DNA of 39,310 nucleotides from Bacteroidia bacterium (GTDB lineage Bacteria > Bacteroidota > Bacteroidia > NS11-12g > UBA9320): assembly GCA_020849295.1 (NCBI GenBank), contig JADLGN010000025.1, positions 1-39,310 of the forward strand. The letters run 5' to 3'. Of the stretch, positions 3 through 35,620 are shown one piece after another. Every line of letters begins with the position of its first letter. Positions within the stretch are counted from its first letter, which is position 1. Below the pieces are notes generated by a model. It had not been told where the DNA came from and did no database searches. It was given only the letters and a program-made list of their open reading frames with translations. Made by a program: the position numbers and the translations under genes.

Positions 3-143
3 ACGAAATATCAAGATACTGTCAATCAAGAAATAGTAAGTAGGTTTTCATTGTGGGAAACATTGAGTTTCTTTGAACTTGCATTTGCCATAATTTTAGC
101 AATTACCTTATTTGTGGGACTTACAAAGAATAACAATAAATGA
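3..143 (+). CDS. C-terminal fragment of an unknown membrane protein
   Basis: An open frame enters from the left edge and stops at TGA at 141-143, giving 46 residues. After a polar stretch it contains one strongly hydrophobic segment of about 20 residues (from FFELAFAI to TLFVGL) and ends in a short basic/polar tail, so this is probably the last membrane helix of a membrane protein. The other two forward frames are closed within about 45 bases. The family cannot be named from this piece. Confidence 0.6.
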   Translation, partial: TKYQDTVNQEIVSRFSLWETLSFFELAFAIILAITLFVGLTKNNNK

Positions 144-236: not shown

Positions 237-365
237 GGCTATAACACGGTATTGCCAAAATGGCGGCAGAAGTGCTACTATGAAACATTTGTGCTAAATT
301 TAACGGCAGTAATTCTATTAAACTTTAGTGCTAATAATCCGCCACTTCGGCAATACCCGAACCGT
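237..365. repeat. Imperfect palindrome resembling an integron attC site (copy 1)
   Basis: A left arm at 247-266 (CGGTATTGCC, then TGGCGG) pairs with a right arm at 339-359 (CCGCCA, then GGCAATACC) around a variable centre of about 70 bases. The left arm is preceded by GGCTATAAC. The right arm runs into ACCGT, after which a small inverted-repeat element interrupts the sequence. A second, differently spelled but equally folded copy lies at 1268-1392. Conserved folding with changing sequence is what attC recombination sites show, but the canonical core sites (RYYYAAC / GTTRRRY) are not exact here. Confidence 0.5.
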
Positions 366-369
366 CAAA

Positions 370-480
370 CTGTCTAAAAACTAAAAAATGAAGCGATTTT
401 TAAATAAAATACTCGGACACATATCTTTGAAAAAATTATTTATTCGATTCTCGAAAGGTTCGTTTTGGGTTTTTAGACAG
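370..480. mobile_element. Small inverted-repeat (MITE-like) element
   Basis: CTGTCTAAAAAC at 370-381 is the exact reverse complement of GTTTTTAGACAG at 469-480. The 111-base unit has no convincing open frame. It separates the right arm of palindrome copy 1 (ending ACCGT) from GTTATGGGC at 486-494, so it looks like an insertion into the palindrome. No clear target duplication is visible. The same left end, including flanking bases, recurs at 1394-1416, where the matching right end is absent. Confidence 0.45.
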
Positions 481-673
481 ACTGCCGTTATGGGCAAGTT
501 TAAACGACACCACAGCGGACACGGGCAGACCAGAGAACCACCTTCTTTGCGGTTTGACAGTTCTTGACTTTTAGGACTGACAGAAAATTAAAGTGGAGAC
601 CAACGACCACTTCAAAAAAAACGGGGCGACACCGAAAAGCCAAACGAGTAGGAAAATTAAATTTGAAATTAAA
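481..673 (+). other. Non-coding leader of a cassette-like unit
   Basis: The stretch begins with the GTTATGGGC junction at 486-494, which is the reverse complement of GCCCATAAC at 1269-1277 after the next gene. Between them the unit carries one gene. The leader holds GGGCGACAC near 624, which recurs near 35680 ahead of the right-edge accessory genes. No TAnnTTTG promoter element is visible. The frame of the downstream gene stays open back to a GTG at 593, but that part reads as low-complexity polar sequence and is probably not translated. Confidence 0.4.
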
Positions 674-1276
674 ATGGAAAATAAGTTCTTGACATTCATA
701 AGTCCATATCTGTCATATATTGACAAAGGACATTTATTCCGAAAACCATTCAGTTGGTTGTATGCAATAATTGGAATTATTAACCTGCTGTTGCCTCTGT
801 ATATTCTGTATCAACTCATTGACCAAAGAATATTTGACGCAGAATTTAAAATCACAATCACTGTGCTTTTAGCGTGGGCAATTATTGCGTTCGCTGGTTG
901 GTTAAGTTATCAACTTTGGTGGGACAGAAAGACAAAAATTACTTTCTCATCAGACGATAACGCAGAATTTGTTGCGACACCTGCTTTCTCTCATCTTATT
1001 CAGACACTTGGTGAATGGATAGGAACTTGGGTAGGACTTGTAGGATTTGGATTTGCACTCTTGACGACCATAATACTTGGCGAGCAAGGAGATTATTTGG
1101 GTTATCAATTTGGAATTCCAATAGTCGGGGAATACTTGGGTTTTGGATGGACTTATGTGTTTCTTATGCCGATATATGGTTTTCTCATTATCGTGCTGAC
1201 AAGATTTTTAGCAGAACAAATTAAAGCACTTTCTGCTATCGCGAACAACACGAAACACAGACAAACCAGCCCATAA
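674..1276 (+). CDS. Hypothetical multi-pass membrane protein, cassette-like gene
   Basis: The protein is 200 residues if it starts at ATG 674. The frame is open back to GTG 593, but the added 27 residues are polar and fall in sequence shared with other cassette-like junctions, so ATG is preferred. Hydrophobic segments lie near residues 28-50, 63-85, 115-135 and 155-175, with a short soluble stretch (WWDRKTKITF and following) between the second and third, so about four membrane helices are likely. No family is recognised. The stop codon lies within the left flank of the second imperfect palindrome, and no promoter is seen upstream; both are typical of genes carried as mobile cassettes. Confidence 0.65.
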   Translation: MENKFLTFISPYLSYIDKGHLFRKPFSWLYAIIGIINLLLPLYILYQLIDQRIFDAEFKITITVLLAWAIIAFAGWLSYQLWWDRKTKITFSSDDNAEFVATPAFSHLIQTLGEWIGTWVGLVGFGFALLTTIILGEQGDYLGYQFGIPIVGEYLGFGWTYVFLMPIYGFLIIVLTRFLAEQIKALSAIANNTKHRQTSP

Positions 1277-1392
1277 CAGCACATTGGCGAATATGGCGGG
1301 TGTAGTAGTAAAATGAACAGTTGTGCTTCTATCAAACTTTGGTGGTAGCTTGACAGTTTAATGCTTCTAATCCCGCCACATCGCCAATCTGC
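1268..1392. repeat. Imperfect palindrome resembling an integron attC site (copy 2)
   Basis: The left arm 1277-1300 (GCACATTGGCGA, then TGGCGGG) pairs with the right arm 1372-1392 (CCCGCCA, then TCGCCAATCTGC) around a central region of about 70 bases. It starts with GCCCATAAC, in which the stop codon of the upstream gene is embedded. The right arm continues into a 23-base stretch identical to 360-382 in copy 1. Stem sequences differ between copies but pairing is kept in both. Confidence 0.5.
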
Positions 1393-1501
1393 AAACCGTC
1401 AAACTGTCTAAAAACTCATTTATTCTTGTTAACAATTTGAGTGTAAATAAGTTGCCGGTGTTTTTCTTTGCTAATATTTTGATTTTCAGTATATTTATGC
1501 C

Positions 1502-1639
1502 ATGAAATTTATAGCAGGTAAAAATAGAAACCAATTAAAGTTTTTATGTTTAGAGCAGGCAGTTGATGCTTTCTGTGATGTTAGACTTATAGACTTGTTT
1601 GTTGCAGGACTTGATTTAGCTAAGTATTGGTTTAAGTAA
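1502..1639 (+). pseudogene. N-terminal relic of an IS1182-like transposase (copy A)
   Basis: The frame codes for 45 residues and then stops. It shows the features of the N-terminus of IS1182-type transposases: MKFIAGKNRNQ, then LEQAV, then VRLIDLFVAGLDL. An intact transposase is about ten times longer; nothing after the TAA continues it. A diverged, frameshifted relative lies at 35419-35543, and both copies are followed by an almost identical 40-base non-coding tail. It is probably an internally deleted insertion sequence, not a functional gene. Confidence 0.6.
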
Positions 1640-1679
1640 TAAACCAAAAACTCTTTTCAAAAAAAACTCTCTTAAATTT

Positions 1680-1719
1680 CATTTATTCCTCTATTTTTGA
1701 ACTAAAATTTGAATTTAAA
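1680..1719. repeat. 40-base tail shared with the second transposase relic
   Basis: This stretch, starting CATTTATTCC and ending GAATTTAAA, matches 35581-35620 at 38 of 40 positions by direct comparison. It lies at a similar distance after each transposase relic, so it may be the retained end of the insertion sequence. Just beyond it, 1725-1762 has a short hairpin (TCCCG ... CGGGA) followed by a second TCCCGA. Confidence 0.55.
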
Positions 1720-1815
1720 TGAGATCCCGACTTGGCGGGAGACAATTTGTCCCGATTTGGCAGAAGATTGAATTTATAAGCAACTTTTTGAGAAAAGTGC
1801 ATTACTCAAACTTTC

Positions 1816-35418: not shown

Positions 35419-35543
35419 AGGGAAAACAGAAATCAGGTAAGTTTTTATTATCTGGAACAGGCTATTGATGATAATAATTACGAAAGGCTTATTGACTTGT
35501 TTTTGCAGGGCTTGATTTAGCAAAGCTTGGTTTTAAGAAATAA
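35419..35543 (+). pseudogene. N-terminal relic of an IS1182-like transposase (copy B)
   Basis: Read from 35419 the frame gives RENRNQVSFYYLEQAIDDNNYERLIDLF, then a one-base shift is needed to continue AGLDLAKLGFKK to the TAA at 35541-35543. The residues parallel the relic at 1502-1639. No start codon remains and nothing of the main transposase body is present. The same 40-base tail follows at 35581-35620. Confidence 0.55.
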
Positions 35544-35580
35544 ACCTATAATTTATCTCAAATAAAATATTCATAAAATT

Positions 35581-35620
35581 CATTTATACCACTATTTTTG
35601 AACTAAAATTTGAATTTAAA
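35581..35620. repeat. 40-base tail shared with the first transposase relic
   Basis: The stretch from CATTTATACC to GAATTTAAA matches 1680-1719 at 38 of 40 bases, better conserved than the adjoining transposase relics. It may be the retained end of the insertion sequence. Confidence 0.55.

What the first reader, a model, noticed from the sequence alone, without database searches (positions are those of the whole stretch)
237..1392. Two attC-like imperfect palindromes bounding a promoterless orphan gene
The two structures at 237-365 and 1268-1392 have different arm sequences but matching self-pairing, and the orphan membrane-protein gene stops inside the second. GTTATGGGC (486-494) before the gene is the reverse complement of GCCCATAAC (1269-1277) after it. 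This is the layout of an integron gene cassette, but the core sites are non-canonical and no integrase is in view. It may be an under-described cassette system of Bacteroidota.
Basis: partly seen in the sequence, partly recalled or inferred. Interest (0 to 1): 0.62.

Follow-up and report, generated by a model that had tools for sequence, protein, structure and literature searches.

The report
Integron-like gene cassettes in Bacteroidota
The stretch is one mobile gene cassette of a gene-capture system that looks and is laid out like an integron, is widespread in the bacterial phylum Bacteroidota, uses a different recombinase from known integrons, and appears also to underlie gut-bacterial immunity-gene arrays and the tet(X3) resistance platform.

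Summary
237-1397 is the tail of one cassette's attC-like site plus a complete second cassette (487-1397). A covariance model of the site (15 of 16 pairs with compensatory changes) finds 38 good copies in the window's genome and sites in 93 of 198 Bacteroidota genomes. In 49 cassettes each start is the reverse complement of its own distant end (5.3 of 6 positions, against 2.0 within a site; 0 of 20,000 permutations). That is the signature of a circular cassette inserted by site-specific recombination at G^TTA. The genome carries a tyrosine integrase of a kind that lies next to such arrays. Downstream of it lies an attI-like site ending in ...GTTA, with a Bacteroidota promoter box at the integrase stop codon. 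The integrase is not an IntI: it lacks the I2 insertion, falls below the curated IntI cut-off, and sits outside the IntI clade. Only about 10% of R boxes fit the canonical attC consensus. Arm complementarity runs 15 nt with a fixed mismatch. The same end-matching rule holds in gut rAID immunity arrays, and tet(X3) on Acinetobacter plasmids sits as the first cassette of such a platform. Recombination itself is inferred, not shown.

The parts
3..143 (+). 3' end of the preceding cassette's gene, cut by the contig start
   Evidence: open frame ending TGA 141-143 just before site 1; the window starts at base 1 of contig C25
237..363 (+). attC-like site 1, R'' (GGCTATAAC 237-245) to L' end; stem arms 248-266 / 339-357
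   Evidence: R1 123 bits, E 2.5e-25 (a training sequence of the model); inverted repeat I3; stem with 15/16 compensatory pairs over 17 sites
364..486 (.). 123-bp palindromic insertion (MITE-like, ends GTCAAACTGTCTAAAAAC / GTTTTTAGACAGACTGCC) sitting exactly between L' and R' at ...C^GTTA
   Evidence: repeated in the genome at 86-98% identity, mostly inside sites of this family
487..501 (+). R' arm of site 1 = first bases of the window's cassette, GTTATGGGCAAGTTT
   Evidence: pairs with 1263-1277 (13/15), not with site 1's own R''
487..1397 (+). complete gene cassette: R' arm, leader RNA, gene, R'' arm and its own attC-like site
   Evidence: cassette end-matching test over 49 cassettes
588..658 (+). 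DUF805 RNA (Rfam RF03081), cassette leader
   Evidence: 75.7 bits, E 1.7e-13; the same RNA lies at the start of other cassettes with unrelated genes
674..1276 (+). cassette gene: 200-aa hydrophobic, apparently multi-pass membrane protein without relatives in Pfam, NCBIfam or 57 related genomes
   Evidence: stop codon inside TAAC
1263..1277 (+). R'' arm of the cassette, AAACCAGCCCATAAC
   Evidence: reverse-complement match to 487-501
1269..1397 (+). attC-like site 2 core (R'' to L'); its R' is lost to the transposon remnant
   Evidence: R1 110.5 bits, E 2.0e-22 (a training sequence of the model)
1398..1751 (+). insertion-element remnant inserted at the same point of site 2, with a 45-codon transposase-like fragment (1502-1639); right end approximate
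   Evidence: copies at other sites of the genome, 87-94%; same left end GTCAAACTGTC; no family match for the fragment

Best explanation
The window holds one complete gene cassette (487-1397) of an integron-like gene-capture system of Bacteroidota. A tyrosine integrase (about 345-385 aa: an N-terminal ~90-aa domain, a SAM-like domain and a catalytic domain, no I2 insertion) recombines a site just downstream of its own gene (attI-like, ending ...TATAAACAA^GTTA) with ~127-nt palindromic sites (attC-like, TAAC...GTTA). Crossover is next to or within GTTA. A cassette circularises when its own 15-nt ends, which are reverse complements with a fixed mismatch, come together to rebuild a full palindromic site; it then inserts at attI or another attC. 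Cassettes are read in the integrase's direction from a promoter at the integrase stop codon. Shown by comparison: site family, covariation, end-matching across cassettes, attI junctions, integrase adjacency, promoter box. Inferred: that this integrase does the reaction, that the substrate is a folded single strand, that the cassettes are still mobile. In this genome one full-length integrase is assembled but at least 9 dispersed copies of its 3' end exist; on four of them the attI junction followed by a cassette can be read, so several platforms may share one enzyme.
For: Site family: 15/16 stem pairs with compensatory changes; 38 sites of 44 bits or more in this genome, sites in 31/39 relatives and 93/198 Bacteroidota genomes. 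End matching: 49 cassettes, 5.33/6 across the cassette against 1.95 within a site and 2.06 at random, 0/20,000 permutations; the match runs exactly 15 nt with a fixed mismatch. First cassettes behind attI match 10-14 of 15. Integrase beside arrays: (16 Bacteroidota loci with sites, 0 of 38 loci from other phyla), phylum-wide association 57/36/13/92, Fisher p 5e-13. attI-like ends. Promoter TANNTTTG at the integrase stop in 16/35 loci against 2.35 expected. Closest fold in PDB is the integron integrase 2a3v. The same end rule in gut rAID arrays.
Against: No recombination event was observed: no strain pair with and without a given cassette, no circular form. 36 of 93 genomes with sites lack a strong integrase hit, and 13 of 70 with the integrase lack detected sites (the model was built on one genome and may miss variants). 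The window's own array has no attI in view and its last site has lost its R' arm, so this particular cassette may be immobile now. The integrase lacks the element IntI uses to read folded attC.
Confidence: 0.88

Rival explanations
1. The units are canonical integron cassettes, captured by a true IntI elsewhere and now stranded as CALIN-like clusters in Bacteroidota.
For: Layout, cassette logic and attI are those of an integron; the integrase is distantly related to IntI.
Against: No match over the IntI cut-off in the genome; the co-located integrases score 190-217 bits in two pieces against 454-488 in one for true IntI controls; R boxes fit GTTRRRY in 8/77 and RYYYAAC in 7/87; quick tree places IntI apart.
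Confidence: 0.05
2. The palindromes are a dispersed repeat or regulatory RNA family (terminator, RNA element) next to unrelated genes; nothing is captured.
For: Sites are strongly structured, and a known RNA (RF03081) lies in the same units. A palindromic insertion element does repeat at the sites.
Against: A terminator or RNA explains pairing within a site, not pairing of one site's 3' flank with the next site's 5' flank 250-12,700 nt away, nor the same rule at attI junctions, nor integrase adjacency.
Confidence: 0.03
3. The units move by another recombinase (XerCD or an insertion element's transposase), the neighbouring integrase being coincidental.
For: XerD is present in the genome; an insertion element sits exactly at the crossover point of many sites.
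Against: Sites co-occur with the specific integrase, next to it and on its strand; sites without the insertion element obey the end rule; attI overlaps or follows the integrase gene.
Confidence: 0.04

Closest known systems
Integrons (IntI / attI / attC / gene cassettes), including sedentary chromosomal integrons
   Same: Tyrosine integrase, attI, arrays of mostly single-gene cassettes, palindromic sites with variable sequence and conserved pairing, crossover at GTT, R'' paired with the cassette's own upstream R', promoter upstream of the array, species-typical sites.
   Different: Integrase lacks the IntI-specific I2 insertion and carries an extra N-terminal domain; it usually points the same way as the cassettes with attI behind it; R boxes are non-canonical; end complementarity is 15 nt with a fixed mismatch; at least 9 integrase-3'-end copies in one genome.
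rAID (recombinase-associated acquired interbacterial defence) arrays of gut Bacteroidales
   Same: Same integrase family, co-oriented short genes with conserved intergenic motifs, described as having a predicted tyrosine recombinase (PMC12247911); here shown to obey the same end-matching rule.
   Different: Sites are about 55-60 nt, start of cassette is CCATTA rather than GTTA, cargo is immunity genes. The held papers do not describe the boundary rule or an integron mechanism; the founding paper was not held.
'Integron-like' subgroup of simple tyrosine recombinases (PMC8138268)
   Different: In the passages read, no sites or cassettes were assigned to I2-less members.
DUF805 RNA, Rfam RF03081
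   Same: Found in the window at 75.7 bits.
   Different: Known as a cis-regulatory candidate; its position as a leader of mobile cassettes is not in the material held.
IS1111-attC type insertion sequences (own knowledge; PMC11187229 on IS1111 targeting)
   Same: An insertion element that targets cassette recombination sites.
   Different: Here the element is small, at C^GTTA, and its transposase family was not identified.

Membership tests
Integron (IntI-based) | IntI integrase with the I2 / IntI-specific insertion, over the curated cut-off | tested here: not met
   TIGR02249 190-217 bits in two stretches, gap over model 176-239, cut-off 265; IntI controls 454-488 in one stretch; no I2 helix in the AlphaFold2 model
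Integron (IntI-based) | attC sites with canonical R boxes (RYYYAAC / GTTRRRY) | tested here: not met
   7/87 and 8/77 fit
Integron (IntI-based) | palindromic attC with conserved structure rather than sequence | tested here: met
   15/16 pairs with compensatory changes
Integron (IntI-based) | attI next to the integrase as the entry point for cassettes | tested here: met
   conserved ...GTTA junction 40-160 nt behind the integrase stop; first cassettes match end to end. Comparative only
Integron (IntI-based) | cassettes: one gene plus one attC, R'' complementary to own upstream R' | tested here: met
   49 cassettes; some units hold several genes
Integron (IntI-based) | Pc promoter reading into the array | tested here: inconclusive
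   Bacteroidota -7 box in 16/35 against 2.35 expected; no expression data
Integron (IntI-based) | recombination of folded single-stranded bottom strand | not testable with these tools
   needs biochemistry
rAID arrays | tyrosine recombinase of the family followed by co-oriented short genes | tested here: met
   recombinase and arrays found in relatives of the window's genome; rAID examples L303 and L305 carry the same integrase family
rAID arrays | cargo of T6SS immunity genes, GC below 41% | not tested
   the window's gene is an orphan membrane protein; no Pfam domain found; GC not measured

The most novel reading that the evidence does not exclude
A second, widespread kind of integron: an integrase lineage without the I2 helix solved the reading of folded cassette sites in another way (15-nt arms with one fixed mismatch, perhaps its N-terminal domain), and it built both the gut rAID arrays and the platform from which tet(X3) left Bacteroidota.
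Probability: 0.5. Interest if true: 0.93.

Novelty: new variant of a known kind. Interest (0 to 1): 0.84.

Why it matters
Integron surveys define integrons by the I2-bearing IntI and canonical attC, and the IntegronFinder 2.0 survey reports almost none in Bacteroidota (one complete integron, Salinibacter; PMC9024848). If this reading is right, about half of sampled Bacteroidota genomes carry cassette sites that such surveys miss. It gives rAID immunity arrays a concrete mechanism, places a clinically important tetracycline-inactivating gene as first cassette of such a platform on Acinetobacter plasmids, and makes a testable case against the view that the I2 helix is indispensable for cassette recombination.

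Tried and rejected
Rfam as the explanation of the palindromes: only RF03081, inside the cassette, matches. TIGR02249 in the genome: all hits below cut-off, and the control genomes ring too. A naive TAAC...GTTA hairpin scan had no power, because most sites in this genome are split by the insertion element; the covariance model solved it. Search for the window's gene in relatives: none, so no second copy of this cassette to compare. Orthologous locus in the genus: synteny is broken, no clean empty site. Identical cassettes in different genomes: none among the 49, only shared leaders and tails. A strict rAID site finder missed most boundaries; the intergenic pairwise test replaced it. Careful tree did not finish; only the quick tree was used.

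Full report
What is in the window. Bases 1-1751 are the end of a cassette array. Site 1 (237-363) is the attC-like site of a preceding cassette whose gene tail ends at 143. Its 3' arm (R', 487-495) is separated from the rest by a 123-bp palindromic insertion (364-486). The next cassette runs from R' at 487 through a leader RNA (588-658, Rfam RF03081), a 200-aa hydrophobic orphan protein (674-1276; apparently multi-pass, by inspection only), its R'' arm (1263-1277) and site 2 (1269-1397). A longer remnant of an insertion element (1398 to about 1751) follows. Both palindromes beat all 200 shuffles.

The sites are a family. The same palindrome recurs in the window's genome (G000, 2.68 Mb, 55 contigs). 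Seventeen cores, about 125 nt each, vary in stem sequence but share the stem: 15 of 16 predicted pairs show changes on both sides that keep the pair. A covariance model (R1) finds 38 sites of 44 bits or more in this genome, sites in 31 of 39 relatives with runs often spaced about 1 kb apart, and sites in 93 of 198 Bacteroidota genomes, 56 of 103 genera. The 17 training sites match by construction; the others do not.

The decisive test. In an integron, a cassette is inserted by recombination at G^TT, so the first bases of a cassette once closed its own attC when it was a circle. The R'' at a cassette's end should therefore be complementary to the R' at that cassette's own start, and not to the R' it now faces within the same site. 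For 49 cassettes from this genome, its relatives and named genomes, the six positions outside GTTA/TAAC match 5.33 of 6 across the cassette, 1.95 of 6 within a site and 2.06 of 6 between unrelated loci; no permutation of 20,000 came near (best 145 against 261). The match covers 15 nt and stops sharply at the next base; one position inside it is nearly always different (A at all 49 cassette starts, G at the matching position in 45). First cassettes behind attI obey the same rule in all 11 cases tried (10-14 of 15).

The integrase. The genome has a tyrosine recombinase at the end of contig C9 (361 aa to the contig edge) and at least nine other places that hold only its 3'-terminal part. On four of those (C14, C28, C31, C55) an AT-rich attI-like stretch ending ...TTTACTA^GTTA and then a cassette can be read; others run into contig ends. 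In relatives the same family lies beside arrays. In named genomes fetched with the integrase profile, R1 sites occur in 16 Bacteroidota loci, nearly always downstream on the integrase's strand, and in none of 38 loci from other phyla. Across 198 genomes sites and strong integrase hits go together (57 both, 36 sites only, 13 integrase only, 92 neither; p 5e-13; the split at E 1e-65 was set by eye from the table to set XerD apart).

It is not IntI. Three true IntI proteins caught by the same search score 454-488 bits in one stretch against TIGR02249 (cut-off 265); the Bacteroidota proteins score 190-217 in two stretches, with the I2 region missing. IntI-specific sequence is the defining feature used in the field (PMC9668308). 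A quick tree puts the IntI clade apart (short search, some long branches). The AlphaFold2 model (mean pLDDT 88, pTM 0.56) has no extra helix there, yet its best PDB match is an integron integrase (2a3v, E 1e-17), ahead of XerA. R boxes fit the canonical consensus in 8 of 77 and 7 of 87 ('canonical' here from own knowledge). So it works like an integron but fails two membership tests.

Expression. In 16 of 35 loci the Bacteroidota -7 box TANNTTTG lies near the integrase stop codon, mostly 8-18 nt behind it, against 2.35 expected in shuffles (maximum 6); in 12 of the 16 a TTG lies 16-28 nt further up, often in the codons for the conserved SPFD motif. This is a candidate Pc; the box consensus is from own knowledge. 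The DUF805 RNA lies about 65-100 nt after R' in several cassettes with unrelated genes, for example what looks like a secreted metalloprotease in G004, so it is a cassette leader rather than tied to one gene; its function is unknown.

Two known things that fall into place. Gut rAID arrays (tyrosine recombinase, co-oriented immunity genes, conserved intergenic motifs; PMC12247911) carry the same integrase family. In a Bacteroides ovatus plasmid array, adjacent intergenic regions match by the cassette rule (mean run 4.2 beyond TTA/TAA against 2.1 for other pairs, 0 of 5,000 order permutations), and in a Parabacteroides plasmid (5.8 against 2.8, 26 of 5,000). Their sites are shorter and start CCATTA. 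That these two arrays are rAID systems is inferred from the recombinase, the co-oriented short genes and the immunity annotations. On Acinetobacter plasmids the recombinase gene upstream of tet(X3) is of this family (49% identity); between them lie a perfect TATATTTG box and a ...CCACTT^GTTATGTGCC junction, and tet(X3) is followed by an R'' arm and the 5' half of an attC-like site (31.9 bits, E 1e-5), cut off by the neighbouring sequence. The two arms still match at 12 of 16 positions, with the usual fixed mismatch, but differ at the three bases next to GTTA.

What is shown and what is not. Shown: the family, its structure, the end rule, attI-like junctions, integrase co-location, the promoter box. 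Inferred: that this integrase catalyses the exchange, that the substrate is a folded strand, that the window's cassette still moves. Its last site has lost R' to an insertion element, so this copy may be fixed. No strain pair was available. Literature was limited to open-licence papers; the founding rAID paper was not held, so part of this may have been noted there.

Taxonomy.

Noticed in passing
G000 contigs C4, C8, C14, C28, C30, C31, C51, C55 (L041, L047, L053-L057, L292): At least nine dispersed copies of only the integrase gene's 3' end, several followed by attI and a cassette; three share about 25 nt of left flank (CTTATCTCAAATAAAACCCTGTCC), which suggests the attI platforms themselves have been copied by an unknown route.
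   Followed up: partly
window 364-486 and 1398-1751; sites on C9, C14, C15, C19, C24, C28, C31, C49: A small palindromic insertion element (possible target duplication CGT) sits at the exact crossover point C^GTTA of many attC-like sites, so it seems to target them.
   Followed up: partly
window 35423-35620: A 200-bp stretch 77% identical to part of the insertion-element remnant at 1521-1719.
   Followed up: no
window 588-658; L163 5366-5433; L251-L279: Rfam DUF805 RNA recurs up to seven times per related genome; 13 of 30 fetched copies have an attC-like site within about 1.5 kb, so the RNA may be a general cassette leader.
   Followed up: partly
L299 6001-8270 (Acinetobacter p80-1-2-tetX3), L302: tet(X3) lies as first cassette behind an integrase of this family with a truncated attC-like site.
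   Followed up: partly
L166 (G000:C18): Three neighbouring cassettes carry their main reading frame on the opposite strand, unlike nearly all others.
   Followed up: no
L300 7000-9430 (Chryseobacterium plasmid): A second palindromic insertion (TTGGGAAAAATCGCCC...GGGCGATTTTTCCCAA type, about 190 nt) sits at the same crossover point in another genus.
   Followed up: no
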